Source: a virus
Length of the DNA stretch: 43,122 nt
Reading direction: 5' to 3' (one strand)
Virus record (IMG/VR): IMGVR_UViG_3300030616_000045
Span: 1 to 43,122 of that record
Notes under the pieces: model-generated
Database searches by the model: none
Told to the model about the DNA's origin: nothing
Seen by the model: only the letters and a program-made list of their open reading frames with translations
Shown: positions 12,106-41,670 of the stretch, one piece after another
Layout: the number at the start of each line of letters is the position of its first letter
Numbering within the stretch: the first letter of the stretch is position 1
Translations under genes and position numbers: made by a program

Positions 12106-12621
12106 TTATCCTCCTATGTGTTCCAGTTTCACATCACAGTCCACATACACCTTAAACCCGTTGCGGCGAGCATTCATGCAAAACCCTATGTCCTCTGGCG
12201 TCTGATCGTCTCCCACAAACTCGTGCCGAAACCACGGCTTCGGACACGTATCAAAAACGCTCTGATGCACCAACAAAAAACCAGCCCCCACCCAATCAAC
12301 AGAATGAATGCCCGTGCTGTTCTGTGACACATGCCCCCTGTCGTTTACCGCAGCGCAATAGTGCTCCGCCCCCCTCTGTATGTAGGCACCACCGACTATT
12401 GACCGCTTCCTGTTGAGAAGCTGTCGTATGGCCCTCCGGGGATCGGCAGGCACAATGTCAGCATCCCAGAACAGATACCACTCTGCACCTCCAACCAGGT
12501 TATTCCTGTTCCTCCAGATGTGCGGCCCCGTACACGTTTCCCATCGCAACCCCGTTCGTTTCACCGCCCGTCGCATACGGGGGTGTGCCTTCTTGTACAG
12601 AGGTGTGCATATCTTAAGCAT
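12106..12621 (-). CDS. GT-A-type glycosyltransferase (171 aa)
   Basis: Start ATG 12621 lies eight bases inside the preceding fibre gene. Sequence features of a compact family-2-like transferase: N-terminal strand MLKICTPLY, the metal-binding WDADIV at 52-57, IVGGAY, DWVGAGFLLVHQSVF at 109-123 and the acidic acceptor-side EDIGFCMNARRNG at 143-155, ending with CDVKLEHIG. Short but complete in its motifs. Likely decorates fibre proteins or a surface glycan; the substrate cannot be told. Confidence 0.65.
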   Translation of the reverse strand: MLKICTPLYKKAHPRMRRAVKRTGLRWETCTGPHIWRNRNNLVGGAEWYLFWDADIVPADPRRAIRQLLNRKRSIVGGAYIQRGAEHYCAAVNDRGHVSQNSTGIHSVDWVGAGFLLVHQSVFDTCPKPWFRHEFVGDDQTPEDIGFCMNARRNGFKVYVDCDVKLEHIGG

Positions 12622-18785: not shown

Positions 18786-19014
18786 GGTATTTCAGGTGCT
18801 CCAAATGCGCTTTCACTCCGGCAATCTCTTGCAGTATTTGCACGTTCTGTCGCCTGACATACTCTATGCCCTGATCGGTATTGTGGCGCAACTCCATCTC
18901 GTTGGTCAGCCGCGCCTCAAGCCTCCCGCACCACGCCGCAAAAGATATGGCCAACAGAAAAAACGGGACAAGCAGTTTTATCCAAGCAAGCGTGCCGTTC
19001 TTCGGGAGATTCAT
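18772..19014 (-). CDS. Membrane protein with N-terminal TM and coiled coil (80 aa), spanin- or holin-like
   Basis: An 80-residue protein. Residues 10-29 are one hydrophobic segment (AWIKLLVPFFLLAISFAAWC), and the rest is a charged coiled coil (RLEARLTNEMELRHNT, QNVQILQEIAGVKAHLEHL). This is the architecture of inner-membrane spanins (Rz-like); it may also be a virion or holin-type protein. No outer spanin partner was found, so the assignment is tentative. ATGA overlap with the giant protein gene. Confidence 0.45.
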   Translation of the reverse strand: MNLPKNGTLAWIKLLVPFFLLAISFAAWCGRLEARLTNEMELRHNTDQGIEYVRRQNVQILQEIAGVKAHLEHLKYHDCK

Positions 19015-22000
19015 TGTGCCTCCTTGGGCAATGTATATCTCTTGATTATTCCCGCCTTCTTCTGGAGATACTGCAAGCGTGCCATTTGGGATACATGTTG
19101 TATGCTCTTAGCCAATATCTTCTCCTGCTGTTCTGGTGTTTTCTTCTTAAGGGCACCCCTGTTGACATTCTGCAACTGTTTCGTGGTGAGCGCGGCCATA
19201 AATCTCTGGAGTTCGGAAATGTCTTTGGCATCCAGATTCATCACCACGTTGTCTTTTGTCCGAGAAGCACCAATCTCCGCAAGCTTGTCTTGTGTCAACT
19301 CGTCTAGCTTGGCAATGCCCTTGAAGCGGTCCACACTATAAGTAATTTTTCTCGGCGCCCTTCTCGGCAACTGCCCCGTTCTGCGTTCTGCCACATATGG
19401 TTCAAGTATCATCTGCACCATTGGATCAACTTCGTACTTAGTCACAAACGCGGGGTTAAAAAACACGTTGAACAACGAATTGGTTCCACCCTTGTAGATT
19501 TCCTTCTTTTTCAGACCCAGCGTGTTGTATGCTTCCGGCAGCATCTTTTCAACAAACGGAAGCTTGTTAATGGCACCATTAAGGGCTTTGCGGAACGGGT
19601 TTGGGTCATGTTTTTCTCGTGCGGTGTTGTCCATTACCTGTCGTATCTGGTACACGAATGTGGGAACAAACGAAGATGGCGCCTGTTCAAAAACTCGCTC
19701 AAATGCGCGAATTGCCTGACGCCCCTCGTCTCCCGGCACCCCCCTGCCAAACAATGTCTGAAGACCGGTCAACATCGGCAACTCAGCAAACGACTGCGCC
19801 CCAGCACTAAACAAGTCCACCATATTTCCCAGAAGAGAACCGTAGTCGCCCTTCTTAATGTATTCATCTTGAATAGTCTGCTGCCAGTTTGCGCCCATTG
19901 AAAGAGAAATGGCAAGAGGCTGTGCCCAATCATATGACACCATTGTATCGCCCTGTCTTTTCTTGAGCACATCTGTTCCCTTAAACCCGGACTGCGCCCA
20001 CCGCATCAGCGCCGAGGTGTTTATGCGGAAGGGGCCACCACCCGTCTGCTCGCGCTCAAAGGCGCTTACGCTGTAGTTCTCCGCATCCCCAGTAATAACC
20101 CCCAGATTGTACAGCGCATATCCCATCCCCGTTAGTCCAGCCGTGCCGACAAGGGCACGAGACATGGACTGAACAAACGCCCGCTGATCAAACTCGCCCC
20201 CGAACGCAGGGATGGCCTTGGCAAGATGGTACATGGACTTCACAAACCCTGCGGGAGAGTAGGCAAAGGCACGGTTCACAAGGTTAGAGGGGGTCTTGGG
20301 ATACTTAAGAATCAAATCACCAATCCCGAAGTCTTTTTTAACATTCAGGATGTCTCTTTTGAGTTTTGTTGCCGCATCAGCAAGAAAATTATCGTCCTGA
20401 AAGGTCACATATTTGCCGTACTCGTGAGACAAGTCTATTGCCTCATCTGATGCATTCTTTATCCAGTTTTGTACATACTCTGTGCGCTCTGCCTTGGGAA
20501 TACGATTGTTTATTGCTGCAAGTTCCGCCAATTCACCAAGTGTTCTGTTTTTGGCAGACTCCACCACCGCTCGGTCAGTAGCACCAAGAACCACCCCAAG
20601 TGCCCGCTCCATATATGCCACAGCCCTCTCGGCATACTTGAACTTACCCTCAGCATCAGTCCTGAATGCCGGGGCTTTAAGCGAATACTTTGTTTCAATA
20701 TCGCCTTGAGGAAGCCCCTTCCATGCCCTGCGGGTTGCAAACATAAGACCCTTGTACATTTCCTCCAATGCCTTTACCCCACCACGCCGTAGCGTCACAG
20801 ACCGCTTGCCCGTTGCTTTTGAAACCACAATGTCTATCGGCGTTCCAACAACAGACGAAACACGCTCGGCACCCTGCATCAGGGCATTACCAATAATGTT
20901 TCTGCCCAATGTCTTAACATTGAGAAGCTGGGCAAGGGTTTGAATAGTAGACACTTTCCTCAACAACCCAACCGGCTTCAGCATTTCAATAGCCTGCTGG
21001 GTTTCCAGCACAGCCTCTGTTCGCGCCTCGCCCGTAAGTTGCTCTGCCTCAGCAAGACGGGTCTGAAAATCAACCAGCATGTCTTCGGGCACCATCTCGT
21101 TGGCCTCAAGCCTCTTCAATATCCTGTCAATCGCCGTAGCCTGTTCCCACAGTTTTCGAGTGCGGGCACGCTCGGTTTTCAGGGCCGACTGAGCACGTCT
21201 GTATATCTTCTTGAGGTGTGGCTTTATGTCCTCACCCAAATCAGACACCATCGACTTCGACCACTCAACAAACCTCAGGCCCGTCTCCGCAAGCTTGGCA
21301 GCACCAATAATAGACATGTCTGCCATTTCTTCTGCCGGGAGACCTGCACGAAGCCGAATCTCCTGCTCGGCCTTCTTGTACTTAGCCATGCGTTCCGCAG
21401 CCATGTCGCTAAGCCGCGACTGAAGCATGGAATTTAGACTTGGCTTCTTTGGGGTGGCCCTTGGCTTGGGAGATCGTGGCTCAACACCAACCGCATCACG
21501 GATTCTTGCCTGAAGGGTTTTCAGCGAGTTAATGTCAGCAACAGTAACCTCGCCTGTATCCAGCACCTTCTGAATAGCCTTTACTGTGTTCTGTGTTTCC
21601 TTGTCCAGCGTATCCCACGTCTGGGCCTCTTTGGCAAGACGAGTAATCTTGCGTGCGTCTTCGGTCTTGAGAATAAGCTGGCGTGCCTTGGGCCGCTGAC
21701 GGTTTACCCGGTCAATCTGTTTCTGCGCGGAGGTAAGAAATGTTTCTGGGGCAATCTTGCTGAGAACACGAACCGCCTGAATCTCCTGACCAGCACTAGT
21801 CAATGCCCGCGCAGTCTCAGAAGCAATATCCATTGCCTTCTGCATATTGGCTTCAGATTTTGCGCCCTCTACCTTGCCCGCACTAGTTTGATAATGATCA
21901 ATCAGCCTTAGGGCAACAACAGTCTTGTCTGCACCTTTAGATTCGTCAGACTTGACCCATTCTTCAGCACCGACAAGGCCGCGCTCTTCGATAAGAGCAT

Positions 22001-24284
22001 CGGCCCGTTTAATCGATTCCGCATTGGATTGTGGGGTATACAGCTTGTCAGTACCGCCAACACGACCCTTCTTCTCGGCCGTCTTGGGGAAGCTACGCTC
22101 TTTCTGGTTGCCATCACCAGCGGGGGGCTTCTTTGCAGCGGTGGGTGTCTTCGGTGGCTTTACTGGCTCCCCTGGCGCTGTCTCTGATACTCTTTGTCCG
22201 CCAGTCTTCGGGCCTTCTTGGCCTCTATCGACCTCTCCCCGTAGTCTTTTAGCTGTTGCGGCGTCAATTTCACCCGCCTTGGCAAGTTCATCTATGGCCT
22301 CCTTCGCTTGTTTACGGCTGAAGTCAACCACATATTGCTTGCGGCCAACCTCCTTCCCCTTAATGTATTCTGCAACACCATCTTTGTCAACAACTAATTG
22401 ATTTCTTCCACTATCCTTGGCCATAAAGGATGCCCTATCGCTCACAAGGGCCTTATCACCACCCTCTGTGGTATAGTTACCCTTCCCGATGCCCATAGAT
22501 AGTGTAAACGGGTCATTTCCAATGCGTATTGCGTCTGGTGCCTCCTCCAAAAAAGCCTGCGCAGCGGCTAATTTTTCTGGGGTAAGCTCCTTGCCGAGGT
22601 TCCCAAAAAATTCCTCACCACCCTCTCGACCATAGAAAACATCATCAAACTGGCCAAAGTGCTTGTGAAACAATGCACCTATCTGTGTGATTACGTTATC
22701 CCCGGCCTTGTGGCCTTGGGTATCGTTCACAGCCTTGAACTTATCCCCATCTATGCTGATTGTCCAATCATCATCAGCAACAGCATCTACCTGTGTCTTG
22801 GTTACTGAGTTATTGGGGAGACCTGTAAGTTTGTCTTTCTGTGCGGGAGAAACTTCAACCTTCCCAAATACGACCCTTTCTTGAAGGTCGGCAGGCACCT
22901 GTACCTTTGTCGGGTTTGTCGCGTCAGCCCCAGCAGTCCCAACATCAAACGTAGGCTCCTCTTCTTCTGGCTTTGTTTCTGCAACGCTCTTTGTAGGTTC
23001 ACCAATTTTTGTTTCTGTCGGGCGCTGTTCATCTCCCGGAGTTGGTCTTGGCAAGTCTAGTTTGTCGAGAATTTCAAACCCATCACCACCCTTGCCCTTT
23101 AGCCATTTCTGTACCTCTGCTCTCTGTGCTCCCTGAGTGGCTTTGAACTTGGCCCCTGAAGCCACATCGCGAATGGCAAACCCTTCAGATATGGCAAGGT
23201 TCAAAAGCTCGTTCTTCCACCAATCGTCGCTTCCAACATCCTCGCCAGACACGGCACCAACCCCAACATCGTACACAAGATCGGCAAGGGGCTGCGCAAT
23301 TAGCTGTATGGCGTTCGCGGGAGCAAAAACCTCAGGAACAATCGAAACAAGTCCAGCGCCAGCACCACGCACCGCATCGCCAACAGCTTCTGCCAAAGTG
23401 CCCTTGCCACGGATTGCCTCATCAACACCGCGAGCCCCGGACAGCCCGCCCGCAACGGTTGCCCTCGTAATGGCTTGCACAAGCAGGGGGGACTTTGCAA
23501 TGGCCGGAATTGCCTGCAAACCCTTTCCAACCAACCCTGCCAGCCCTATGGACTGAAGAACCGTTCCACCAAGTTGCCCAGCCATAAACAACTCTGGGTT
23601 CATTGACAGAAATTCTGCTTTCTCCTCATCGCTTATCTGATTCAAAAACGGAATTGATGCAGCAAGCCCTGCCGACACAGACCCTATCTTTCCAAACTCG
23701 TGCCAGTAGGCCTCATACCGTGCGTCGTTTTCTATCTTCTCGCGGTCTTCTTTTGGAAGACTGGCAAGATACATGTCATATGTTTGGGGCGTTCCCGGCA
23801 CCTCTCCACCGGGCCCCTGCATTGGCTTTTCAAGCTCGGGGAGAGGTATGTCTTCCGGCCCCATCTCTTCAGTTGGCGGCGGTTCTGCCGCCACGGCTTC
23901 CGCCGCCCCACGCGCACCGGCATGGGCAGCAGGAATCATAATGCTTTCTGCAACTTGCTCTTCGGTTGGCTGCGGAATTGTAGGCTGTATGTCCACTGCC
24001 GTGCTGGATGCAATGGCTGGTTCTATCTGTGGCGTGGTGTCACGAAACGTGGGCTGCGGGATTTCTGTTTGAGGAAACAGCGTCCGAAGATTGCTCTCTA
24101 TCTCTTCCGACCCCCAGCCACCATATGGCTTAAGCGCAGACAGAGCTTGGGTCAGACCGCCAATTCGTTGCGTATCCCCCGAAGAAAGCACATCGGTGAC
24201 ATTGGTGCGAATCTCGTCAGGAGACCACCCCGAATATGCAGACAGCCCTGCGGCTGCTGAAAGAAAATTATCCTGTCGGGCCAC
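19011..24284 (-). CDS. Giant internal virion-type protein with embedded GGDEF domain (1757 aa)
   Basis: GTG start (24284) overlapping the previous TAG by one base. Residues 1-180 are Pro/Glu-rich with two short repeats (GWSPDEIRTNV, GWGSEEIESNL). 230-330 contains hydrophobic, glycine-rich stretches that may enter membranes. 480-635 is a complete-looking GGDEF domain: DKLTGLPN, D512 and D514 in IDGDKFK, N520, D529 in GHKAGD, GGEEF at 555-559, LSMGIG, and AKDSGRNQLVV. Catalytic residues of diguanylate cyclases are present; no RxxD inhibitory site is visible. 780-1757 are long helical regions like other ejected or polyvalent phage proteins, with another hydrophobic stretch at TAGLTGMGYALYNLGVITG. 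Inferred to be ejected into the host and to make cyclic di-GMP. Confidence 0.75.
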   Translation of the reverse strand: MARQDNFLSAAAGLSAYSGWSPDEIRTNVTDVLSSGDTQRIGGLTQALSALKPYGGWGSEEIESNLRTLFPQTEIPQPTFRDTTPQIEPAIASSTAVDIQPTIPQPTEEQVAESIMIPAAHAGARGAAEAVAAEPPPTEEMGPEDIPLPELEKPMQGPGGEVPGTPQTYDMYLASLPKEDREKIENDARYEAYWHEFGKIGSVSAGLAASIPFLNQISDEEKAEFLSMNPELFMAGQLGGTVLQSIGLAGLVGKGLQAIPAIAKSPLLVQAITRATVAGGLSGARGVDEAIRGKGTLAEAVGDAVRGAGAGLVSIVPEVFAPANAIQLIAQPLADLVYDVGVGAVSGEDVGSDDWWKNELLNLAISEGFAIRDVASGAKFKATQGAQRAEVQKWLKGKGGDGFEILDKLDLPRPTPGDEQRPTETKIGEPTKSVAETKPEEEEPTFDVGTAGADATNPTKVQVPADLQERVVFGKVEVSPAQKDKLTGLPNNSVTKTQVDAVADDDWTISIDGDKFKAVNDTQGHKAGDNVITQIGALFHKHFGQFDDVFYGREGGEEFFGNLGKELTPEKLAAAQAFLEEAPDAIRIGNDPFTLSMGIGKGNYTTEGGDKALVSDRASFMAKDSGRNQLVVDKDGVAEYIKGKEVGRKQYVVDFSRKQAKEAIDELAKAGEIDAATAKRLRGEVDRGQEGPKTGGQRVSETAPGEPVKPPKTPTAAKKPPAGDGNQKERSFPKTAEKKGRVGGTDKLYTPQSNAESIKRADALIEERGLVGAEEWVKSDESKGADKTVVALRLIDHYQTSAGKVEGAKSEANMQKAMDIASETARALTSAGQEIQAVRVLSKIAPETFLTSAQKQIDRVNRQRPKARQLILKTEDARKITRLAKEAQTWDTLDKETQNTVKAIQKVLDTGEVTVADINSLKTLQARIRDAVGVEPRSPKPRATPKKPSLNSMLQSRLSDMAAERMAKYKKAEQEIRLRAGLPAEEMADMSIIGAAKLAETGLRFVEWSKSMVSDLGEDIKPHLKKIYRRAQSALKTERARTRKLWEQATAIDRILKRLEANEMVPEDMLVDFQTRLAEAEQLTGEARTEAVLETQQAIEMLKPVGLLRKVSTIQTLAQLLNVKTLGRNIIGNALMQGAERVSSVVGTPIDIVVSKATGKRSVTLRRGGVKALEEMYKGLMFATRRAWKGLPQGDIETKYSLKAPAFRTDAEGKFKYAERAVAYMERALGVVLGATDRAVVESAKNRTLGELAELAAINNRIPKAERTEYVQNWIKNASDEAIDLSHEYGKYVTFQDDNFLADAATKLKRDILNVKKDFGIGDLILKYPKTPSNLVNRAFAYSPAGFVKSMYHLAKAIPAFGGEFDQRAFVQSMSRALVGTAGLTGMGYALYNLGVITGDAENYSVSAFEREQTGGGPFRINTSALMRWAQSGFKGTDVLKKRQGDTMVSYDWAQPLAISLSMGANWQQTIQDEYIKKGDYGSLLGNMVDLFSAGAQSFAELPMLTGLQTLFGRGVPGDEGRQAIRAFERVFEQAPSSFVPTFVYQIRQVMDNTAREKHDPNPFRKALNGAINKLPFVEKMLPEAYNTLGLKKKEIYKGGTNSLFNVFFNPAFVTKYEVDPMVQMILEPYVAERRTGQLPRRAPRKITYSVDRFKGIAKLDELTQDKLAEIGASRTKDNVVMNLDAKDISELQRFMAALTTKQLQNVNRGALKKKTPEQQEKILAKSIQHVSQMARLQYLQKKAGIIKRYTLPKEAQ

Positions 24285-25693
24285 TAAAACCCTTCTCCCT
24301 TACCCCCACCCATCATCGCCTTAACCCGTTCGATGGCCTCCGGCGTAGGCTGTGGTATTCGTGCCGCCCGTGCATTTTCTTTCGCCACGATATACCTAAA
24401 TGCATTGAGCAACTCCACGTCTCCGGCAATCTGTGCGGCCATCGTATTGGGCTTTACTACGCGCTGTATACGACCAAAATCATCCTTGCTGAACTCAACA
24501 TCGTTGGGAAATATATTACCAAGTTCGCGGTTCACAATGGTGCTAAGCGTAGCTTCCGCTGCCGGAGCAGACTTTGGTGTTGCCGTCTTGGGTGTGGGCT
24601 GTTTTGTTTTTCCGTGTACCGCCTGGTTTTTCTGCTCCTCCGCAGCCTTTACATCTCCTTTCAGGCGCTCAACATTCTCCTCTTCAGAAGTCAAAATTTC
24701 AAGCATAGTTTCCTTGCTGGCAAGGCCACCATCATTATCCCACAAACCAAGGGGCTTTGCTTCGGCAATGAGCTTTTGCCGCTTCTTGGGATCTGACAGA
24801 ATCATTGGGTCTTTGCTTACTTGATCCAGCACCTTCTTCACACCCTTGGCCTTGGCTTCTGACCTACCAAGCTCTTCGGTTTTCCCAAAAATGTATGTGT
24901 TTGCGCCAAGTGCAGAAGTCATGCCACCCTTAGTCTTAACGTCAGCCATAAGAGCATCGTCTGGAGACGGCGCCTGTTCTGGAAGCGCCCCGCCTAGGGC
25001 AAGCTGTTGCTGACGAATCTCTTGTGGTGTCGCCCCCTGCTGCCCAAGTGTCGTGGCAATGCGTTGCTGTGCCTCTGGGCGTGTTCGTGCCTCGCCAGCG
25101 GTTGCCATTTGTGGCTGCATTGTGGGTGGCGCAGAAAGCCCCAATTGCTGAGAACGAGACGGTTCCCCGCCGGGGGCAGTCTCCCGCTGCAACCCAACAT
25201 CAGCAGACAGTTGCTGGCTTGGCTCCTGTCCCTTAAACTGTGCCCCCAGCGCACCCTGTGCTGCTTGCCCAAGCTGTGCGGTGCGGGACTCCTGTGCCGC
25301 CTCCTTACCGAGCGTTCCAATATCGGCACCCATCGGAATCATCGAAATGAGATCCTGCTTCGATATTCCAATAGCCTCCAGCCTTGATGTAATTGGCTTA
25401 TACCATTCGGAGATGCGCTTGGTATAGCTTCTTGGATCTTCGTTTTTTTCCGGCTTGGGAACAAGCTTCGCCAACTCGGCCTTTGTTGTGCCAATGTCAT
25501 GCACAGCCTTGTCGGGCATCTTGTAAACGTGTTTCTGAACACCGCTGTAAAGCTCCCCCGTCTTTACCTTGTGTTCGCGGAATTGGGGCATGTTTTTGAT
25601 GGCACCCCCAACACCGGCCGCAATCTGGCTCCCAGCTTGTGCAATCCAACCATAATCCTGCACATAGTCTCGGGGATTATATGTGCTTGCCAC
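24284..25693 (-). CDS. Internal virion/structural protein, Gln/Ala-rich (469 aa)
   Basis: GTG start at 25693. N-terminus has a glycine-rich stretch (WIAQAGSQIAAGVGGAIKN), then charged helices, a middle part very rich in Gln and Ala (QLGQAAQGALGAQFKGQEPSQ), and a C-terminal helical domain (DDFGRIQRVVKPNTMAAQIA). No enzymatic motif seen. Sits between a TM/coiled-coil protein and the giant GGDEF protein, corresponding by order to internal core proteins of T7-like phages (gp14-gp15-gp16). That equivalence is inferred from order and composition only. Confidence 0.55.
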   Translation of the reverse strand: MASTYNPRDYVQDYGWIAQAGSQIAAGVGGAIKNMPQFREHKVKTGELYSGVQKHVYKMPDKAVHDIGTTKAELAKLVPKPEKNEDPRSYTKRISEWYKPITSRLEAIGISKQDLISMIPMGADIGTLGKEAAQESRTAQLGQAAQGALGAQFKGQEPSQQLSADVGLQRETAPGGEPSRSQQLGLSAPPTMQPQMATAGEARTRPEAQQRIATTLGQQGATPQEIRQQQLALGGALPEQAPSPDDALMADVKTKGGMTSALGANTYIFGKTEELGRSEAKAKGVKKVLDQVSKDPMILSDPKKRQKLIAEAKPLGLWDNDGGLASKETMLEILTSEEENVERLKGDVKAAEEQKNQAVHGKTKQPTPKTATPKSAPAAEATLSTIVNRELGNIFPNDVEFSKDDFGRIQRVVKPNTMAAQIAGDVELLNAFRYIVAKENARAARIPQPTPEAIERVKAMMGGGKGEGF

Positions 25694-25696
25694 GGG

Positions 25697-26053
25697 CTAC
25701 CCCCTTCCCCAGCGCGCCCAAAGGGAATTCTTAAAGTTCTCGTCATTGTTTGCTCTGAAGAGCAGCATGTTTGCCAGCTTGTCTTGGTCTTGCTTTTTCA
25801 TCTGTTTTCGGGTCATTCGCTGCTGAAACATTGACTCCCTCTCGCGCATCTCAAGTTCGCGGGTCTTAAGTCCCAGCACGCGGCGCGTTTGCCCCCGCTC
25901 ATATTCCTGCTGTTCCTCTTCGCGGGCCAATTCTTCCTTGTGCATTTCCCGCGCTTCTCCCTGTGCCTGCGAGGACGAGACAGATGATGCTATGCCCGAA
26001 ACGGTGGTTGCTGTCGCCGCAATTGCCGCCGCAATAATTGTTCCTACTGCCAT
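25697..26053 (-). CDS. Virion protein with N-terminal hydrophobic helix and coiled coil (118 aa)
   Basis: A 118-residue protein. Residues 3-28 are small hydrophobic residues (GTIIAAAIAATATTVSGIAS), and residues 30-95 a highly charged helix (REMHKEELAREEEQQEYERG, then MTRKQMKKQDQDK). Similar in form to T7 gp14-type internal proteins that insert in the outer membrane on ejection. Overlaps the sulfotransferase gene by 10 bases. Confidence 0.55.
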   Translation of the reverse strand: MAVGTIIAAAIAATATTVSGIASSVSSSQAQGEAREMHKEELAREEEQQEYERGQTRRVLGLKTRELEMRERESMFQQRMTRKQMKKQDQDKLANMLLFRANNDENFKNSLWARWGRG

Positions 26054-26583
26054 ATTTCCCTCCCAATGCTTGTCATAACCTCATCAGAAATGTTGTCCAT
26101 ATCAACTATGCGGTATGGAATGTCTGTTGTAAGACACCACTTTTTAATGGCATTGAGATGTATGTCCACAACCACCCTCGCAATCCATTTGGGAAACAAC
26201 CATCCTAATTCTTTGAGAAGGTTACCATAGCTCCTAATGGTATCATCTCTATTCCGCCGACAAACAATGACAAACGAAACCTTTCTTGGCGACACAAACG
26301 AAAGAAGCCCCCCCCACACCTTCATACATGCTCGCCGCATTTCCATTCCCAACACATCAAAGAGCTTGCTGTCATAAAATCCCTCGGGATTAAACCTTCG
26401 TATCCTGTCGTGTTCTCTCAAAAACGGTTTTGCAACTGGTGGTATTCCCATCTTAGCTACTTGCCGCACCATCCATGATGTCCCGCTCCTCGGCGCACCA
26501 GTTACCACAACCAAGCCACCACTAATCCTCAACACGATATTTTGCACCAAAGGTAAGCGTTTCCTCCACACCGCTTTCAACAT
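26044..26583 (-). CDS. Sulfotransferase-like protein (179 aa)
   Basis: P-loop-like PAPS-binding motif TGAPRSGTSWM at residues 28-38 and a second motif for the 3'-phosphate, RRNRDDTIRSYGNL at about 106-119, are the two hallmarks of sulfotransferases. GFYDSKLFDVL and WLFPKWIARVV fit helices of the fold. The family moves sulfate from PAPS to hydroxyls of sugars or proteins. ATG 26583 follows GAAGG but overlaps the previous gene by 62 bases; GTG 26535 is an alternative start giving 163 residues. About half the size of typical enzymes, so possibly a minimal version. Unusual inside a structural operon. Confidence 0.6.
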   Translation of the reverse strand: MLKAVWRKRLPLVQNIVLRISGGLVVVTGAPRSGTSWMVRQVAKMGIPPVAKPFLREHDRIRRFNPEGFYDSKLFDVLGMEMRRACMKVWGGLLSFVSPRKVSFVIVCRRNRDDTIRSYGNLLKELGWLFPKWIARVVVDIHLNAIKKWCLTTDIPYRIVDMDNISDEVMTSIGREIWQ

Positions 26584-29052: not shown

Positions 29053-29235
29053 TCAACTGTTGATTTTTCTGTCCAAAGAATATAGAAGCTGCCGCATCTG
29101 CTTCACCTCACCAAACAACTCTATGTATGCCTCATTCAACTGCCGAAACGACTCCTCCAACGACAGATTGGGACTAATCTGGCGAGGCTGAAACGTGCGC
29201 AAACTCTCGTTTCTGTCTGTCAGTACAGCGGGCAT
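29053..29235 (-). CDS. Small coiled-coil protein (60 aa)
   Basis: A 60-residue protein overlapping the spike gene by 16 bases. The first 25 residues are extended (TDRNESLRTFQPRQISPNLS), and the rest a helix (ESFRQLNEAYIELFGEVKQM) with heptad leucines. Could be a connector peptide or a chaperone for the spike. No homologue recognised. Confidence 0.5.
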   Translation of the reverse strand: MPAVLTDRNESLRTFQPRQISPNLSLEESFRQLNEAYIELFGEVKQMRQLLYSLDRKINS

Positions 29236-31526: not shown

Positions 31527-31968
31527 GCCTATATGATCCCTGTGGCAATTTTCCCGCACCAGTACATTTCTTGTTTATCATCGCAAACACTGAATCCCTG
31601 CCAAGCGATATCCCCCACGGCTTCTTCTGCCTTTCCCATGCCCAATCCACTACCCGCTGAGGAATCCCATCACTTCCCACGTAGAAACAAAAGAAGTCCC
31701 GCACCTCCCCTCTTACCGGAAAGCGCGTTTTCTTCCCGCTAACCTCACCCTTCCACCGGCAGTCGAAGTCATGGTACAGCCACCCAACCCTCTTGGTGCC
31801 CTCGTGGAATCGCACAATGTCACTCATCACCCGCCATCTGTCCACCCCGTCTGGCAGCATCGACCGTTCAAACAACCTCTCCATCTCATCATCAAGAGAA
31901 GTTATCACCTCGTCAAACGTATGTTCCGGCATTGGCTCATCACCAAGCCACACACCAAAGGTCTTCAT
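31519..31968 (-). CDS. Unknown protein in tail cluster (149 aa)
   Basis: Start ATG 31968 from the ATGA overlap with the tail-tube gene. Features: WLGDEPMPEHTFDE, an acidic helix (ITSLDDEMERLFERS), CRWKGEVSGKKTRFPVRGEV and the motif FFCFYVGSDGIPQRVVDWAWER. No family recognised. Ends within eight bases of the spike start. Probably a tail assembly component. Confidence 0.5.
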   Translation of the reverse strand: MKTFGVWLGDEPMPEHTFDEVITSLDDEMERLFERSMLPDGVDRWRVMSDIVRFHEGTKRVGWLYHDFDCRWKGEVSGKKTRFPVRGEVRDFFCFYVGSDGIPQRVVDWAWERQKKPWGISLGRDSVFAMINKKCTGAGKLPQGSYRHG

Positions 31969-34439
31969 TCGGTCAATCCCCACAGGTACAATACCCCGTC
32001 CTTGTATGCAGAAGCCGTGGCCCGCACCCACCCCCGGAGGTAGTTCATCACCAGTTCATAACCCTCCTGCGTTTCGGCAAGGTTCGGCCCAAACGTAAAC
32101 CCGTCAAACACCCGCACTCCCGGCTCTGATGTGACAACTATCTGTTTCCCCGTATCCACATCTACTATTGACCCCCAATCCAGTACACCAATGTTAGCCT
32201 CCTGCGGCTGCATACCGTTCAAGACATTGATAAACTGGCCGGTACTAGGTACACTAAAGGGAGTAGATGTATTCGTCGGCCCAGCATATACGCTTTTTGC
32301 GCAATAAGCAACAATTCTATTCGGGAACTCCTCAAGCGACTGTATTGCATCATTTACATCCTCATTGTACTGATACCCCGCAAAGTAATACCCCGCAAGG
32401 TACTGGTATTCCGTCGGAAGCTGCGTGTAGTAGAACCGCTTGGCCCCCCGGTTCCCAGAGAACATCCACCCCGGCATCACTCTGCCAATGTTTCCGTTCG
32501 GCACCCGTTCCCACAAGCGGTTTTTCATTGACAGGAACTTAATCCGTGACCGCACAACCGCATCGTCCGTGCGGTCGTTGAAGTTTCGATATCGCGGTGC
32601 CCACGTCACGCCCTGAAGTACCCGCGTGCCCGTGTCCCATACCCGCACATGGTTGCAGTCAATCACCTCTCGGACAATCGACCGATACCCACTAGACCAA
32701 TGGATGGTTGTGCCGGGAGTTAGGTCACAGAACCCGTCCCCGCCACCCTCCCGCGTGATAACGTCGCCGCTCTGAGTAGCAACCGTAAACTCTCCGTCGC
32801 CAATCGCCGCCGCCTGATATTCTTTCTGGTCTTCGACGTAAGGCGCCCTGCTTACCGTAACGTGCGTCTCGTCTATGTACGTGGCAATGGTATCCCTGTC
32901 ACCATCCTCCCACACCAGCGGGCTTCCCACATCAGCCGCCTCAAACTGGCCCCTGTGCGCAGTTACCGTGCCGTCCACATCCTTGGAGGCGTAGAACGCT
33001 GCACACGTTCTCAGGTCATACAGCCACACGTACCGCTCGGTGTCGTTGCCCTCGCCCGTCACAGGGTCGGTGCCGTTGACCCCCACATCCTGTGTTCCGT
33101 AGATAGAGAAATGCGTATAGCACTCGTGTGGAGTCCCATCATCCTTGAGGGGAACCCGCAAGAGCGTTATCGTACTCGGCTGTGCAAATATCTCCGTCTC
33201 GGGAGTGGAGCCAATGATATTCGTGTACACGGCGCTGGATATGTCCACCGTTCCCGTTCCGGCACCGATGCTGTCAAGCGTACTGCCGTCCACATCGCCC
33301 GACGTAAGCTCAAACTGTCCATCGTCATTGTAGATGCAGGTGGAATCGGGCCAGTAAATCTTCATCACCTTCTGAATCCGTGCCGCCACATCATCCATTG
33401 TGCCTACGCCAGTGAAGTCAATGTGCAACATGTGTTCCCGGCCATTTATCGAAATCTCAAATGACCCATCCTCCACAATGCTCCACACGCCCACAGCATC
33501 CAGCGCGGCATTTACCACCGCCGTTCCCAAGAGCCTGCCACGGGTCTTGGTATTATCCCCAATGCGATACCGTGTCCACACCTCGCCGTAGTCCTGCTTG
33601 TTGTCATCCACGGCATTCGGGCCAGCCTCAGTCTCAATCTTGGCACCCGTTGTCCCCCGGTTCCGAAGCGTGGTCTCTCCCGTGAGCCGCATGGCACAGT
33701 AAATGTACCGCCTCCCGTATGGAAGCTCGTCGGTCTTCACTACGCTGTCCACGGGCTGCGCGGGGGTGTTGTTGTTAAAGCGGTAGAACCGGGGGATTAC
33801 GGTGTCTACCACCAGCCTGTACGTTCCATTGGAATTGAAACACACCACGTCGTTGTCAAACTCATCAAACGTGGAGGTGGAATTGTTCGGCGCCAGCGGC
33901 GGGTCTACGCACACCAGCCGCGTCCAACCACTCATCTCAAGATCGTTTGCAACGTAGAAATTCGTGCCAAATTGAGCAACAATCAGGCGGTTCTCTTTGT
34001 GCTGTATCCACCCGTTGTGTTTACCCCTCAAGTGACAGTCGTACTCCGTGTCCCGGTCAAACTCGTCCCGCGTCTTAACCTGTGTTGCACTAATCAGTTC
34101 AACAATCTCATCGTTCCTGCCGTCTGACCACACCCAGTAGTTGGATATGTCATCCAGCGTAAAGCCCGCGTCAGCAGACGTGATGGTGCGCCCCGACTTG
34201 CTGCCGGTATAGTGTGTTCTGCCGGGAAGGTGCGGAATGGCGTTGTCCCGGTACATCCGCGTTCCGAACCGGCCCTGAACCCACCGGGGGTATGCCACGG
34301 CATTAACGAGTTTGTTAACAGCGCCATCGGGCCATACCGGCGGCCCATCCATCATTCCCAGGGTGAAGTTCTCCCACTCCCTGTGGATCTGACGGTCGCC
34401 CTGCTCTTTGCCTCTAGGCTGCTGCGTGATACGCGGCAT
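31965..34439 (-). CDS. Tail tubular protein B-like / nozzle protein (824 aa)
   Basis: A large beta-rich protein starting MPRITQQPRGK, with ENFTLGMMDGPPVWPDGAVN, LVNAVAYPRWVQGRFGTR near the N-terminus, the usual opening of tail tubular B and related stabilisation proteins of podoviruses (a ligand-poor, Asn/Gly-rich start with R-x-G). It has repeated beta modules (residues 100-700) with RIKFLSMKNRLWERV and PGWMFSGNRGAKRFYYTQL near the end. Start at ATG 34439 (TAATG overlap) or ATG 34445. Order after tail tubular A supports the call. Confidence 0.65.
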   Translation of the reverse strand: MPRITQQPRGKEQGDRQIHREWENFTLGMMDGPPVWPDGAVNKLVNAVAYPRWVQGRFGTRMYRDNAIPHLPGRTHYTGSKSGRTITSADAGFTLDDISNYWVWSDGRNDEIVELISATQVKTRDEFDRDTEYDCHLRGKHNGWIQHKENRLIVAQFGTNFYVANDLEMSGWTRLVCVDPPLAPNNSTSTFDEFDNDVVCFNSNGTYRLVVDTVIPRFYRFNNNTPAQPVDSVVKTDELPYGRRYIYCAMRLTGETTLRNRGTTGAKIETEAGPNAVDDNKQDYGEVWTRYRIGDNTKTRGRLLGTAVVNAALDAVGVWSIVEDGSFEISINGREHMLHIDFTGVGTMDDVAARIQKVMKIYWPDSTCIYNDDGQFELTSGDVDGSTLDSIGAGTGTVDISSAVYTNIIGSTPETEIFAQPSTITLLRVPLKDDGTPHECYTHFSIYGTQDVGVNGTDPVTGEGNDTERYVWLYDLRTCAAFYASKDVDGTVTAHRGQFEAADVGSPLVWEDGDRDTIATYIDETHVTVSRAPYVEDQKEYQAAAIGDGEFTVATQSGDVITREGGGDGFCDLTPGTTIHWSSGYRSIVREVIDCNHVRVWDTGTRVLQGVTWAPRYRNFNDRTDDAVVRSRIKFLSMKNRLWERVPNGNIGRVMPGWMFSGNRGAKRFYYTQLPTEYQYLAGYYFAGYQYNEDVNDAIQSLEEFPNRIVAYCAKSVYAGPTNTSTPFSVPSTGQFINVLNGMQPQEANIGVLDWGSIVDVDTGKQIVVTSEPGVRVFDGFTFGPNLAETQEGYELVMNYLRGWVRATASAYKDGVLYLWGLTE

Positions 34440-35086
34440 TAACATGCCCTCGCGGGTGTCTGATTAGTCTCGGACGGGGGATTGTGATTCATGTCGCCCC
34501 AATACTCTATCCTCATGCGCTCAACCCATTGGAGCCACGGGGTGATATCCCCGTACTGCATATATTTAATCCGCGCAATACACCCGTCGATAAACAGCAG
34601 CTCGTATGGCGGTTCGATGTCGTGTTGAACACTCAGCGACGTAATGGATGTTGGCTCCACCCAGTAGGCCGTGTAGTATTTACTTGTAGTGGTGCCGGGG
34701 TCAGAACGAAATATCACATTGGCATTGGAAAAATTTGTCTTCCGGCTTGGCGTCACCGGAACCTCAAAACACTTCTTCCCCCCGTATGATATCTGATGAT
34801 ACTCCCCGTAGTCATCCGAAGACGGATAGGTACTCTTCGCCTTGAAGAATACCGACTTCAGCATTCTTGCATTATCCGGCAGGTCGTACTGATACGTACC
34901 GGAAGTGGTCGAGAGAAGAGGCGGGAATCCAGTAGTCGTATCAATGTACTCGTTTGCTTGGACGTTCCCGCTCTTCATCTCTCGATTCACCGCATCAATG
35001 ACAGTAAGCGTGCCGCGTGTACCAGTTTTGGTCCACTCGGACGCCTGCATTGATATGAGTTCAGCTATTTGACGGGTTGTGTACAT
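34439..35086 (-). CDS. Tail tubular protein A-like / head-tail adaptor (215 aa)
   Basis: A 215-residue protein: helical start (RQIAELISMQASEW, LTVIDAVNREMKSG), central beta region (TYQYDLPDNARMLKSVFFKA, KKCFEVPVTPSRKTN), and the typical YELLFIDGCIARIKYMQYGD followed by a helix and RIEYWGDM. Length and layout fit gp11-like tail-tube/adaptor proteins of T7-type phages. Overlaps the coiled-coil gene by 22 bases and precedes tail tubular B. Confidence 0.6.
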   Translation of the reverse strand: MYTTRQIAELISMQASEWTKTGTRGTLTVIDAVNREMKSGNVQANEYIDTTTGFPPLLSTTSGTYQYDLPDNARMLKSVFFKAKSTYPSSDDYGEYHQISYGGKKCFEVPVTPSRKTNFSNANVIFRSDPGTTTSKYYTAYWVEPTSITSLSVQHDIEPPYELLFIDGCIARIKYMQYGDITPWLQWVERMRIEYWGDMNHNPPSETNQTPARAC

Positions 35087-35922: not shown

Positions 35923-37158
35923 CTAGTTGCTCACGTCACCACGCGCCCAAGCACAGACGCACGAGTAACGCTGTTCCACGGTCGCGGCAGTCGGCGTCGC
36001 GGCGTCGTACCAGCGAAGCTGGACACCACGCTCACCAAACGCACCCTTGCCCTCCCACTTCTTGTAGTTGTAATCGTCATACTTGTGATGCAGTTTGACG
36101 GGATACAGATCCACAAGCGGAGCCTTCCCAAGGAAGAACCCAATGTCGCGGGCACCCGAAGACGTGTCGCGCCCATCGTTGTTACCAGGCTCGACGTATC
36201 CGGGCGTCAGGGTGAACGGAGAAGCCGAACCGCTAATCGAAAGGGTAGGAGCCCTCTCGTCCTCAACGAGGTAGATATTCAGCCACTTCCCAAGCGCCGC
36301 CCCCTCGGGGAACATGTAGCGCTCGCTGTCACTCCAGCGATGGGTCGGGACAAAGTATCCGCTCGCCGTGGAATCCGAACGATCCAGATCCAGAATGTGG
36401 AACTTCTGGGCACTCGGAATCGTCAGGACAAAGCCCTTGCCACCAGGCAGATCCAGCGGCTCCCAACGCTGCGTGGTCGCACGGTGATGCAGTGCGGTCA
36501 GATAGCGAGCGTCGAGGTTCGCATTCGCACCAGTACCGGCAGCAATCAGCGCATTGGCAATGTTGTCAGTATGGGTCTGGAGGGTGGTGCTGTACGCAGG
36601 CTGGTTCGCGTCCGACACGTTCTTCACGTACCAGTTGTTGTTCCATGCCTGTGTAACCGACACCGGGCTACGGGTCAGGTTACGAGAATAGCGCTGGAGG
36701 AGTGCCTGCCTGTAATACAGACCGGCCAGCTCTTCCATGAACGCACCCAGTTTCTTCGTGGCAAAGTCCATGTTCTCGCCATACGGCTTGGTGCCCGAAG
36801 AATAATGGATACCATAGTTCCACACAGCCACAGCATGGCTGAACTCATTGTAGTAGGCATCCATGCTCTTCTCGCGCAGGGTTTCCTCAAAACCAATCTG
36901 GTTCTGAAGGTCACCCTCACGAGGAGTGTTCTGAAGCGCGTTGGAGAATCCGAGAGTTATCGTGCGGTAGCCGTTGTTCGCTTCCGCATTAAACTCCATC
37001 GTGAGCGAGTTGCCGGGAATGTCGATGTTGCTCGTGTGGTCGAAGATCGTCCGCAGAGACGAAAAGACATCCCTCTGAAGCGACTCGCTGTACAGCTTCG
37101 TGTCCCAATACTGCCGAATTAGATTGGCATTAATTTGGGAAGGAGTTGCAACAGCCAT
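35923..37158 (-). CDS. Major capsid protein (411 aa)
   Basis: A 411-residue protein directly after the scaffold gene and of HK97-fold major-capsid size. The N-terminus (MAVATPSQINANLIRQYWDT) with LYSESLQRDVFSSL resembles capsid proteins of podo- and siphoviruses with P22-type portals. It continues with a long extended-loop region (EFNAEANNGYRTITLGFSN), an SMDAYYNEFSHAVAV helix and beta-rich remainder. Assignment uses gene order (portal, scaffold, capsid), size and composition. No explicit protease motif was seen nearby. Confidence 0.8.
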   Translation of the reverse strand: MAVATPSQINANLIRQYWDTKLYSESLQRDVFSSLRTIFDHTSNIDIPGNSLTMEFNAEANNGYRTITLGFSNALQNTPREGDLQNQIGFEETLREKSMDAYYNEFSHAVAVWNYGIHYSSGTKPYGENMDFATKKLGAFMEELAGLYYRQALLQRYSRNLTRSPVSVTQAWNNNWYVKNVSDANQPAYSTTLQTHTDNIANALIAAGTGANANLDARYLTALHHRATTQRWEPLDLPGGKGFVLTIPSAQKFHILDLDRSDSTASGYFVPTHRWSDSERYMFPEGAALGKWLNIYLVEDERAPTLSISGSASPFTLTPGYVEPGNNDGRDTSSGARDIGFFLGKAPLVDLYPVKLHHKYDDYNYKKWEGKGAFGERGVQLRWYDAATPTAATVEQRYSCVCAWARGDVSN

Positions 37159-38605: not shown

Positions 38606-40714
38606 CTATCTCCTCGCTAGTGTCAGGCCCGATGAAAGTTCTGGTTGTTCACCTGATAGCTGTGGTACGCTTTCGCCGCCTACCGGCAACGGCCCCCCAG
38701 GACTTGTTGGAGCGCCACCGGGCTCAGGGGCCCCTCCGCCGCCCGGAGGACCGCCAGCAGGTTGTGCCGCTGCCCGAGCCTGCTGCTTCATCACTTCCGC
38801 ATTGGCAATAGCAGCCTCGGTCTCACTCTGCAATCGACGGCGATCCAACGCAACGGATTCTATGGCCTCTTGCTTTTTGATCTCATCAAGGTCAAGAGAA
38901 TTGACCACGTTTTCCATGAAACTCATACTCGTATTCGGTGCCAACTGTGCGAAGTGCTGTGCCAGCGTGGCGTTTAGCTCGCGCTGCATCAGCCTGTTGT
39001 TCACACCGGCGGGTGCCTCGGAGATAACCACCCGGTGCCGCGCCAGCCCCGAGAAGTCATTGACCACCACATCCTCACCGTTGCCGAGGGTGACGGGGTT
39101 GTTGATTGTCATCTTCCGCAACCCCTTACCGTCGGTGAATGTCCTGCGCCCCTTGGAATAAAGCTGCTTCGCCATGAAGAAATACGCCTCACCAAGGTCG
39201 TTCCAAAGCTGTCTCCGAGACGCCAGCATGGTGGACTGCATGGTTTTTGCAACCTCAACCTTGTGGGCAAACAAAATTCCCGATTCGCCCGAACGCTCCG
39301 TGCGCCCCTCCGACGCGGCGGGTTGCGGAACCAGCCTGTCCATGAGGTCAACCATCTCGTTTACAATGCCGAAAAGATCGGGGGGTATCTGCTGCTTCCC
39401 AACCTCTTGCACCGCATTCGGGAACTGCCGTGATGCCCCCGCCTTCACGTAGCTGACGGCCTGCGGGTTGTTGCGGTTCTTCACGAAGTCATCCATCTTC
39501 TTCTTGTCCATACCGAAGATGGCCGCGTCCACCATGAGGTGACCGTTGATTGACGTTTCCGCAGCAAGGGTGATAGTTGATTGGCGCTTGTTGATTTCCA
39601 CCTGTGCGTCCCGAAGCTGATCCACCATCGGAACGGGCTTGCCGTTCATCCGCGTGGTAGTCCACGGAAAGTAGGGCAGGCGCCCAAGCTGAAACTCATC
39701 CTTATAGTCATCCAGAGCGTAAGACAAAGAAAGACCGGGAGCAAAGGTATAAGTGTAAGCCACGTTATCATGGAGGGTGATTTTCTTAATATCCTCGGAG
39801 CCGATACCATTCTTAATGGCGAGGTCTTTCTTCTGCTCATCACTCATCCACTCCCAGAAAACAGTTCCGGTTCGTGCGTCAAATTCCCGGTCAATTTTTT
39901 CTTTCTTCAGGTAGTTGTGCTGCACCACCAAATAGAGGTTTCCGTGACGGTGCGTAACATCATCTACGTTGCGGTTCCAATCGACATTCTTCTTTGCCTC
40001 GTAGTTGTTCCCGCCATTTGCCATCAGCCACTCTTCCCGGCTGATAATGTCACGCTTCATCGGCCACCGCTCCTTGATTTCCTCCATAGTCATCAGGGCC
40101 AGTGTCCAATGGTTCTTCATGTCTTTGCTGCTGGTAGTTATCCAGTCGGGGTCATCAATGGTGGTGCCGGGAGGCATACACTCAATGGCGATATTGCCCA
40201 TTGGCGAGGCGGGGAAGGTGTTCTTCACGTACATTCGCAACGTGCCGCGATACACCAGCCCAAGCGTGGTAACCATCGAGTCCTCAGCCTGCCAGTCCAT
40301 GAGTTCCTTATCGCTCATGTAGGCTTCCTGAAGGGCCATCGTCAGTTCTGTCTGTGATTCATCGTCCGCAACAAATGTCGCATCGAACGGGTTGCGTATG
40401 ATGCTTCCGGCAATGCCGTTGATTTTGAGCCTGAGAAGGTTATACTGCCCAAAATGCGTAAACTGCCCGTGGTCTACACCACGAGCCTCTTGCCTGAGAA
40501 ATGACTGTATGGCTCCGGGCAATTGGGAATTGTCCACCCCACAGTACATCCGTAGGTTTTCAAACTCTCGCTCGCGCTCCCTGCGCTGTGCCTGCTTGGC
40601 AGACAGCCACTTCCTGTAGTGCGCCATCAGCTTTTCATCATTGGCACGCACATACTTCTTTCTCTTGCCACCCAAATCGAACTCGAAAACCTGTTCTGTG
40701 GGTATGTCTACCAT
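38606..40714 (-). CDS. Portal protein (702 aa), P22-like
   Basis: Start ATG 40714 is chosen: it has GAGGAT six bases upstream and follows the previous stop by one base (the frame also has an ATG at 40732). Long helical portal-like protein with RKWLSAKQAQRREREREFEN at the start, YNLLRLKINGIAGSIIRNP, IAIECMPPGTTIDDPDW, a conserved wing region (LPYFPWTTTRMNGKPVPMV) and a Gly/Pro-rich end (GGPPGGGGAPEPGGAP). Size fits P22-type portals of about 700 residues. Forms the dodecameric DNA entry ring. Confidence 0.8.
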   Translation of the reverse strand: MVDIPTEQVFEFDLGGKRKKYVRANDEKLMAHYRKWLSAKQAQRREREREFENLRMYCGVDNSQLPGAIQSFLRQEARGVDHGQFTHFGQYNLLRLKINGIAGSIIRNPFDATFVADDESQTELTMALQEAYMSDKELMDWQAEDSMVTTLGLVYRGTLRMYVKNTFPASPMGNIAIECMPPGTTIDDPDWITTSSKDMKNHWTLALMTMEEIKERWPMKRDIISREEWLMANGGNNYEAKKNVDWNRNVDDVTHRHGNLYLVVQHNYLKKEKIDREFDARTGTVFWEWMSDEQKKDLAIKNGIGSEDIKKITLHDNVAYTYTFAPGLSLSYALDDYKDEFQLGRLPYFPWTTTRMNGKPVPMVDQLRDAQVEINKRQSTITLAAETSINGHLMVDAAIFGMDKKKMDDFVKNRNNPQAVSYVKAGASRQFPNAVQEVGKQQIPPDLFGIVNEMVDLMDRLVPQPAASEGRTERSGESGILFAHKVEVAKTMQSTMLASRRQLWNDLGEAYFFMAKQLYSKGRRTFTDGKGLRKMTINNPVTLGNGEDVVVNDFSGLARHRVVISEAPAGVNNRLMQRELNATLAQHFAQLAPNTSMSFMENVVNSLDLDEIKKQEAIESVALDRRRLQSETEAAIANAEVMKQQARAAAQPAGGPPGGGGAPEPGGAPTSPGGPLPVGGESVPQLSGEQPELSSGLTLARR

Positions 40715-40715
40715 G

Positions 40716-40958
40716 CTATCCTCGCTGTCCAACTACCGGATATAGTTGCGCCTCAACGATAATCTTTTTCTTGGGAATCTGTATGGTGCATCCCCCAGCA
40801 GCGTTCCACGTAAGATGGCATTGCGCATGACAGGAAGAGCAATACAGAATCTCCCGTTTGCTGGATTCAATCTGATCCACAAACTTAAGCGTATTAGCGC
40901 ACGGCTTGGTGCCGCCGTTTCTGCGCTTGTTCGGACATCTGATTTGATACCAAGTCAT
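40716..40958 (-). CDS. Com-like zinc-binding protein ahead of the portal (80 aa)
   Basis: An 80-residue protein with four Cys (IRCPNKR, KPCANTL, LYCSSCHAQC) in a pattern like the Com translational regulator of Mu-type phages: C-x-x-x...C...C-x-x-C. The rest is basic. First gene of the late operon. The ATG lies directly against the T-rich tail of the hairpin 40961-40994, without a clear ribosome site, so translation may be controlled by that structure. Family call is tentative. Confidence 0.5.
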   Translation of the reverse strand: MTWYQIRCPNKRRNGGTKPCANTLKFVDQIESSKREILYCSSCHAQCHLTWNAAGGCTIQIPKKKIIVEAQLYPVVGQRG

Positions 40959-41160: not shown

Positions 41161-41670
41161 ATGACCAAGATTCGTGCATGGCACTTCGTTCGTAACGGCC
41201 GCAATCTCCGCGACGGACAACCACTCGTGGTTGGCAAAACCTATCACCACAAGGGATTCGTGAAGATGTGCCACTCTGGCCTACACGCATCACGGCGGGT
41301 ACTCGATGCGTTGCAATACGCTCCGGGTTGCATCCTCTGCGAGGTCGAGGTCTGGGGCGATGTCGTCGAAGACAGTAATAAGCTCGTCGGGCGCCACCGC
41401 ACAGTACTCTCCGCCACCGACGTAACCAACGTGCTGCACGAGTTCGCGTGTCAGGTCACAGAACAGATGCTCGGTGCTGCCGGTGTCGAAGACGAGCGCT
41501 CGTGGCACGCTATCGACGCAAAACGTGCGTGGATACGCGGTGATATCGGTGATACAGAGCTGGATGCGGCGGGGGATGCGGCGTGGGATGCGGCGTGGGG
41601 TGCGGCGGGGGGTGCGGCGTGGGACGATCTCAACGACCTGCTCACGAGTATGGTGCGGGAGGCCGCCTAG
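41161..41670 (+). CDS. DUF7666-like protein, copy 2 (169 aa)
   Basis: A 169-residue paralogue of 3373-4005, with the same domain signatures (AWHFV, LRDG, CHSGLHAS, DALQYAPG, CEVEV, LVGRHR, RSWHAIDAKRAWIRGD) and the same ending (DDLNDLL). The tetrapeptide repeat is short, about five units (AAGD, AAWD, AAWG, AAGG, AAWD). ATG 41161 follows AAGGAGG. It is the only plus-strand gene in this minus-strand region and has its own promoter at 41112-41140. Function unknown; the duplication suggests selective use. Confidence 0.7.
   Translation: MTKIRAWHFVRNGRNLRDGQPLVVGKTYHHKGFVKMCHSGLHASRRVLDALQYAPGCILCEVEVWGDVVEDSNKLVGRHRTVLSATDVTNVLHEFACQVTEQMLGAAGVEDERSWHAIDAKRAWIRGDIGDTELDAAGDAAWDAAWGAAGGAAWDDLNDLLTSMVREAA

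What the first reader, a model, noticed from the sequence alone, without database searches (positions are those of the whole stretch)
22380..22847. Apparently active diguanylate cyclase (GGDEF) domain inside a giant phage virion-type protein
Residues 480-635 of the 1757-residue protein contain, in the right order, DKLTGLPN, an aspartate pair in IDGDKFK, N520, GHKAGD, GGEEF and AKDSGRN, all residues diguanylate cyclases need for metal and GTP binding. The feedback RxxD site is not visible, so it may be uninhibited. Gene order puts the protein among internal core proteins likely to be ejected into the host at infection. That would give the phage a way to raise cyclic di-GMP, changing motility, biofilm formation or defence signalling, at the moment of infection. 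The link between ejection and signalling is inferred.
Basis: partly seen in the sequence, partly recalled or inferred. Interest (0 to 1): 0.88.

Follow-up and report, generated by a model that had tools for sequence, protein, structure and literature searches.

The report
Phage-carried GGDEF signalling-enzyme cassette
A bacterial virus carries, inside a giant protein encoded at the end of its particle-building genes and probably injected into the host, an intact-looking copy of the enzyme domain that makes the bacterial signal cyclic di-GMP; several unrelated phages carry the same domain in otherwise different giant proteins, so it behaves like a swappable effector part that could be tested directly.

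Summary
Residues 482-629 of the 1757-aa minus-strand protein (window 19011-24284) are a canonical GGDEF domain: twice Pfam's cut-off, AlphaFold pLDDT 95, PDB best match a diguanylate cyclase, and every catalytic residue present. The inhibitory RxxD site is absent.

In three other phage contigs (L100, L143, L144) giant proteins carry the same compact GGDEF plus a shared C-terminal extension. BLASTP finds nothing else in common between them and this protein, so the domain is a mobile cassette. All four sit directly after a 285-469-aa gene at the end of the virion module, and all lack the RxxD arginine. A sister phage's 1997-aa orthologue (L094) is about 55-63% identical over three stretches, but its GGDEF slot holds a degenerate GGDEF-like domain. 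The protein's C-terminal ~700 aa is a Pfam-free carrier family in about 77 other viral ORFs, none with a canonical GGDEF.

The general idea is published: Iyer et al. 2017 predicted GGDEF domains in injected 'polyvalent' phage proteins. This is a new, better-resolved variant. Ejection rests on gene position only, since the carrier matched no solved structure. Activity, product and effect are untested.

The parts
19011..24284 (-). Giant protein P0001, 1757 aa, GTG start with a GGGAG/AGAAGG Shine-Dalgarno-like stretch; last base of the upstream gene's stop codon overlaps its first base
22398..22841 (-). GGDEF domain, residues 482-629, all catalytic residues present, no RxxD inhibitory site
22215..22397 (-). 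Module-specific C-terminal extension (residues 630-690; YxxGxxVGxKxYV then helices), shared with three phage relatives (L100, L143, L144) and absent from bacterial diguanylate cyclases in the alignment
22860..23087 (-). Pro/Glu-rich linker before the cassette (residues 400-475)
22035..22235 (-). Pro/Lys-rich linker after the cassette (residues 684-750)
23067..24284 (-). N-terminal part (residues 1-406); conserved with sister orthologue L094 over 1-70 (63%) and 198-406 (58%), contains two Gly/Ala-rich hydrophobic stretches
19014..21137 (-). C-terminal carrier region (residues 1050-1757), mostly helical, YDWAQP motif, conserved in about 77 other viral ORFs, no Pfam family
24284..25693 (-). 469-aa gene immediately upstream; a 285-456-aa gene occupies the same place in the three relatives
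25697..26053 (-). 118-aa small helical protein with Ala-rich N-terminus (small internal-virion-protein-like; inference from position and make-up)
38606..40732 (-). Portal protein (P22-type), anchors this as a virion gene module
35923..37158 (-). Probable major capsid protein (position only; no profile hit)
31965..34445 (-). 826-aa probable tail protein (position; sub-threshold DUF3383 match)

Best explanation
P0001 is probably a virion-packaged, ejected giant protein of polyvalent type. Its N- and C-terminal parts form the particle/ejection carrier, and an interchangeable linker-flanked cassette (about residues 476-690) is a diguanylate cyclase. After ejection the cassette would refold in the host cytoplasm, pair with another copy, bind two GTP through D512/D529/N520/E557-E558/K623/R627, and make c-di-GMP. 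Lacking the RxxD I-site, it would not be shut off by its product, so a few copies could produce a c-di-GMP pulse at the start of infection. Shown: the domain, fold, complete active site, missing I-site, cassette mobility between otherwise unrelated giant proteins, and recurring gene position. Inferred: packaging, ejection, dimerisation, catalysis, product identity, and host effect (motility/adhesion switching or interference with nucleotide-based defence).
For: GGDEF above curated cut-offs in Pfam and NCBIfam. AF2 pLDDT 95.3 and Foldseek PDB best hits all diguanylate cyclases, 3ign E 5.7e-11. Catalytic residues invariant or consensus in a 40-row alignment. D529 is retained at the base-binding position where cGAMP-making GGDEFs differ (PleD D344/Hypr, own knowledge). 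Only the cassette aligns between P0001 and the giants of L145 (E 3e-23), L143 (6e-35) and L144 (1e-29). Among those giants SLT, LPD1, LPD5 and ART-PolyVal domains occur, and others with more divergent GGDEF carry LPD38 and ART-PolyVal. The giant gene follows a 285-469-aa gene at the end of the virion module in all four. Portals were found in the window's virus and in 5 of the 8 other GGDEF-giant records. The cassette forms one group in the tree, support 94/91. RxxD arginine is missing in all four. The sister orthologue keeps the carrier but has a different module in the slot.
Against: No virion proteomics. The carrier has no structural match in PDB and no recognised SLT/LPD domain. No dimerisation or sensory domain was recognised. 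The sister phage L094 has a degenerate GGDEF-like domain in this slot (second metal Asp and FK lost, GGDEL, 30-residue insertion), so activity is evidently not essential in the lineage. Two of the three relatives have K instead of R627, and L143 has N at D529. The window's branch is long.
Confidence: 0.5

Rival explanations
1. The GGDEF fold is kept but does not make c-di-GMP in the host: it is a GTP-binding or structural module, or makes another (cyclic) nucleotide.
For: The sister orthologue has a degenerate version in the same slot. Phage GGDEF sets from L147/L150/L156 have altered residues around GGDEF and the GRN end. No activating or dimerising domain was found.
Against: The window domain keeps every catalytic residue at about 30% identity to bacterial cyclases, which neutral drift would have eroded; D529 and N520 favour guanine.
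Confidence: 0.27
2. The cyclase is active but acts late, from newly made protein in the infected cell (before packaging), for example to change the surface or clumping of the lysing host, and is not an ejected effector.
For: The gene lies among late virion genes, so it would be strongly expressed late in infection; ejection is not shown.
Against: Placement at the end of the virion module in four phages and fusion with SLT, ART and LPD domains in relatives fit the injected polyvalent-protein pattern (PMC5512222).
Confidence: 0.15
3. The product acts mainly as counter-defence, competing with or mimicking nucleotide signals of host immunity, not to steer motility or biofilm. (This concerns the downstream effect and overlaps with the best explanation.)
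For: Iyer et al. 2017 propose interference with nucleotide-based host responses for polyvalent GGDEF domains (PMC5512222). Slot diversification between sister phages looks like an arms-race pattern.
Against: No defence partner or host is known.
Confidence: 0.15
4. A bacterial diguanylate cyclase gene that strayed into the contig (contamination or prophage edge).
For: Most GGDEF hits in phage and viral collections are of this kind.
Against: The domain is inside one continuous ORF whose N- and C-terminal parts belong to phage families and whose sister orthologue is also phage-borne; a second record has the same ORF.
Confidence: 0.01

Closest known systems
Polyvalent proteins with GGDEF domains (Iyer et al. 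2017, PMC5512222; example Acetonema longum prophage protein WP_004096050.1)
   Same: Giant phage-encoded protein in a virion gene neighbourhood with a c-di-GMP-synthesising type domain; predicted to be injected.
   Different: P0001 has no other recognised enzymatic or LPD domain; it belongs to a YDWAQP carrier family not matched by Pfam; its cassette has a shared C-terminal extension not described in the passages read.
Canonical diguanylate cyclases (PleD, WspR, 3ign Marinobacter DGC)
   Same: Fold, GGEEF loop, metal aspartates, base-binding N/D, triphosphate-binding K/R.
   Different: No sensory or dimerisation domain, no RxxD I-site arginine, embedded mid-protein between Pro-rich linkers, about 30% identity.
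Stand-alone phage diguanylate cyclases (Bacillus phage SP-15 AMM44948.1; Bacillus phage G Gp350)
   Same: Phage-borne GGDEF with the same fold.
   Different: SP-15's is a separate 183-aa protein among sugar genes, not part of a virion giant protein; Gp350's setting was not examined.
T7 gp16-type internal (ejection) virion proteins
   Same: Last, largest gene of the internal-protein set by position; relative L145 even has an N-terminal SLT domain, as gp16 does.
   Different: No SLT in P0001, and no structural match of its C-terminal 708 aa to any solved chain.

Membership tests
GGDEF domain / diguanylate cyclase (PF00990, TIGR00254) | Profile score above curated cut-off | tested here: met
   50.3 vs 23.8 bits; 49.9 vs 37.4 bits
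GGDEF domain / diguanylate cyclase (PF00990, TIGR00254) | Palm-like alpha/beta fold matching solved cyclases | tested here: met
   AF2 pLDDT 95.3; 3ign E 5.7e-11, prob 1.00
GGDEF domain / diguanylate cyclase (PF00990, TIGR00254) | Metal, base and triphosphate residues (PleD D327, N335, D344, E370/E371, K442, R446) | tested here: met
   D512, N520, D529, E557/E558, K623, R627
GGDEF domain / diguanylate cyclase (PF00990, TIGR00254) | RxxD product-inhibition site (common, not required) | tested here: not met
   No arginine at this position in the window or its three relatives
GGDEF domain / diguanylate cyclase (PF00990, TIGR00254) | GTP to c-di-GMP activity as a dimer | not testable with these tools
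   Needs enzymology
Polyvalent proteins (Iyer et al. 2017) | Giant phage protein encoded with virion genes | tested here: met
   1757 aa; portal in the same gene module; same layout in three relatives
Polyvalent proteins (Iyer et al. 2017) | Several disparate enzymatic domains in one chain | tested here: not met
   Only GGDEF recognised in P0001; relatives have SLT, ART, LPD1/5/38
Polyvalent proteins (Iyer et al. 2017) | LPD-type associated domains | tested here: not met
   No LPD hit even at E 10; an HMM of its carrier family does not match the LPD38 regions of relatives
Polyvalent proteins (Iyer et al. 2017) | Packaged and injected into the host | not testable with these tools
   Position only
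T7 gp16-type ejection protein | N-terminal transglycosylase (SLT) domain | tested here: not met
   None in P0001; present in relative L145
T7 gp16-type ejection protein | Fold similarity to solved internal core proteins | tested here: inconclusive
   C-terminal 708 aa modelled at pLDDT 80, no PDB match with E <= 0.001; N-terminal part not modelled

The most novel reading that the evidence does not exclude
Phages keep an exchangeable slot in ejected giant proteins into which a dedicated, feedback-insensitive diguanylate cyclase cassette, with its own C-terminal extension, is moved between unrelated viruses. It delivers a pre-made c-di-GMP pulse to the host at the first moment of infection.
Probability: 0.4. 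Interest if true: 0.85.

Novelty: new variant of a known kind. Interest (0 to 1): 0.62.

Why it matters
If the cassette works, a phage would arrive carrying the enzyme that makes the bacterial lifestyle signal, not just a gene for it, acting before any viral gene is expressed. It would make a 2017 computational prediction about polyvalent proteins directly testable with a small, well-bounded protein fragment (about 215 aa). The slot comparison with L094 offers a natural control that lacks the catalytic residues. The c-di-GMP readout (riboswitch reporters, mass spectrometry) is standard.

Tried and rejected
Host or prophage contamination: rejected, continuous ORF in two records. Phage-collection tblastn hits and most IMG/VR hits turned out to be ordinary membrane, response-regulator or stand-alone cyclases or unrelated matches, so they were used at most as comparison. 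Genome-collection search with the carrier alone found nothing. The tail-protein candidates of the four phages are not similar by BLASTP, nor are the 469-aa and L143 428-aa upstream proteins, so the shared layout rests on gene size and order, not homology. LPD38 homology of P0001's C-terminus, suspected from the YDWAQP region by memory, was not confirmed; instead a separate carrier family emerged. Searching 79 YDWAQP contigs for GGDEF gave none, which first looked like a dead end but revealed L094. No publication on a phage-encoded diguanylate cyclase in a virion protein was found by full-text search. The Panoptes paper concerns a related palm enzyme on the host side.

Full report
What was checked. 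The finding lies on the minus strand. The 1757-aa ORF at 19011-24284 contains a GGDEF domain at residues 482-629 (window 22398-22841): Pfam 50.3 bits against a cut-off of 23.8, TIGR00254 49.9 against 37.4, best PDB relative 3ign, a diguanylate cyclase, E 3e-13. AlphaFold2 on residues 466-690 with 40 aligned sequences gave pLDDT 95.3, and its PDB matches are GGDEF/diguanylate cyclase structures throughout the 50 listed. Every catalytic position examined carries the consensus residue: D512, D514, F516, K517, N520, D529, R553, GGEEF, K623, R627. The RxxD inhibitory arginine is absent.

The virus. The window is a 43,122-base IMG/VR record. A second record, IMGVR_UViG_3300028920_000902 (76,297 b), is the same virus with 3 mismatches over the whole window. 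A P22-type portal is clear (PF16510, phrog_156). Capsid and tail genes are inferred from position. The giant protein is the last and largest of the set; its start overlaps by one base the stop codon of a 469-aa gene, with a Shine-Dalgarno-like stretch.

The domain is a cassette. Searches of IMG/VR found three giant phage proteins with the same compact GGDEF: L100/L145 (2121 aa), L144/L131 (3441 aa) and L143 (at least 1333 aa). They share a C-terminal extension after the GRN motif (YxxGxxVGxKxYV) that the bacterial cyclases in the alignment lack. In BLASTP against P0001 only this module aligns, E 3e-23, 6e-35 and 1e-29; the rest of the chains gives nothing significant. In P0001 it lies between Pro-rich linkers. 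In a tree with 31 bacterial cyclases, taken from the closest ones found, the four modules form one group with support 94/91, present in 98% of bootstrap trees, though the window's branch is long. All four lack the RxxD arginine.

The setting repeats. In the window, L143, L144 and L145 the giant gene directly follows a 285-469-aa gene, downstream of a roughly 780-1150-aa gene. The other proteins are not detectably similar by BLASTP where compared, so this is shared layout between distant phages. Two of the three relatives' giants bear further domains: SLT in L145, and LPD1, LPD5 and ART-PolyVal in L144. Further giants with more divergent GGDEF domains (L147, L150, L153, L155, L156) include two with LPD38, one of them also with ART-PolyVal. 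These are the marks of polyvalent proteins as defined by Iyer et al. 2017 (PMC5512222), who already proposed that GGDEF domains in such injected proteins make or interfere with cyclic nucleotide signals.

The slot is variable. P0001's last 700 residues define a helical, YDWAQP-containing family present in 77 other viral ORFs here, with no Pfam family and no PDB match. One of these, L094 (76.7-kb contig, 1997 aa), is a full-length orthologue: 63% identical over residues 1-70, 58% over 198-406, about 55% over the remainder. Exactly at the GGDEF position it has instead a strongly diverged GGDEF-like segment (VDFRNLGGLND ... TGGDEL) that Pfam does not recognise and profile comparison matches at 82% probability, E 1e-5. 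Whether this is replacement or rapid decay is open. Either way the slot changes much faster than the carrier. No other member of the carrier family fetched here has a canonical GGDEF.

How it most likely works. The best reading is an ejected carrier protein delivering a feedback-insensitive diguanylate cyclase to the host. The steps shown are the domain, its active site, its mobility and its position. The steps inferred are packaging, ejection, pairing, catalysis and effect. Against it stand the absence of any virion data, the missing dimerisation module, and the degenerate slot of the sister phage. I put 0.5 on the full chain as stated, with a non-catalytic or other-product role the main rival.

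Novelty. The concept is published; the specific cassette with its extension, the carrier family, the slot comparison and the repeated placement are, to the extent of the literature searched, not described. I rate it a new variant of a known kind.

Noticed in passing
window 19014-21137 (-) and loci L018-L099: C-terminal ~700 aa of P0001 is a widespread, Pfam-free phage protein family (YDWAQP, NPKT.IRN..GN, FVPT motifs), mostly helical in the AF2 model, in at least 77 other viral ORFs.
   Followed up: partly
L094 3421-4218 (-): Sister phage's slot carries a degenerate GGDEF-like domain with a ~30-residue insertion; no other fetched ORF matches it.
   Followed up: partly
L120 (IMGVR_UViG_3300042988_001700): 4185-aa ORF with a GGDEF domain at residues 764-930; another giant phage protein not examined further.
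   Followed up: no
L147, L150, L156: A separate well-supported set of phage giant-protein GGDEF domains (FADADNFKAVND ... HRGGDE) with altered residues around the active site; tree support 100/99.
   Followed up: partly
L007-L008 (G001 about 54-72 kb): Rest of the genome carries a long run of sugar-nucleotide and glycosyltransferase-like genes, including ones that look like NeuB and NeuA (nonulosonic acid synthesis); read by eye only.
   Followed up: no
window 26044-26589 (-): Small P-loop protein (GAPRSGTSWM), sulfotransferase-like by eye, inside the virion gene module.
   Followed up: no
window 29220-31559 (-): 779-aa protein with a PKD domain (Pfam) and a weak laminin-G/ConA-like match, probable receptor-binding or decoration protein.
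   Followed up: no
window 3373-4005 and 41161-41670 (+): Two copies of one gene (MTKIRAWHFV...) at 83% nucleotide identity at opposite ends of the window.
   Followed up: no
window 12614-15106 (-): 830-aa protein with a long Gly-Ser-Ala-Ser repeat, in the probable tail-fibre region.
   Followed up: no
window 15106-17160 (-): Protein with glycosyltransferase-like N-terminus and a C-terminal match to phage methyltransferase family phrog_2675, next to tail-fibre genes.
   Followed up: no
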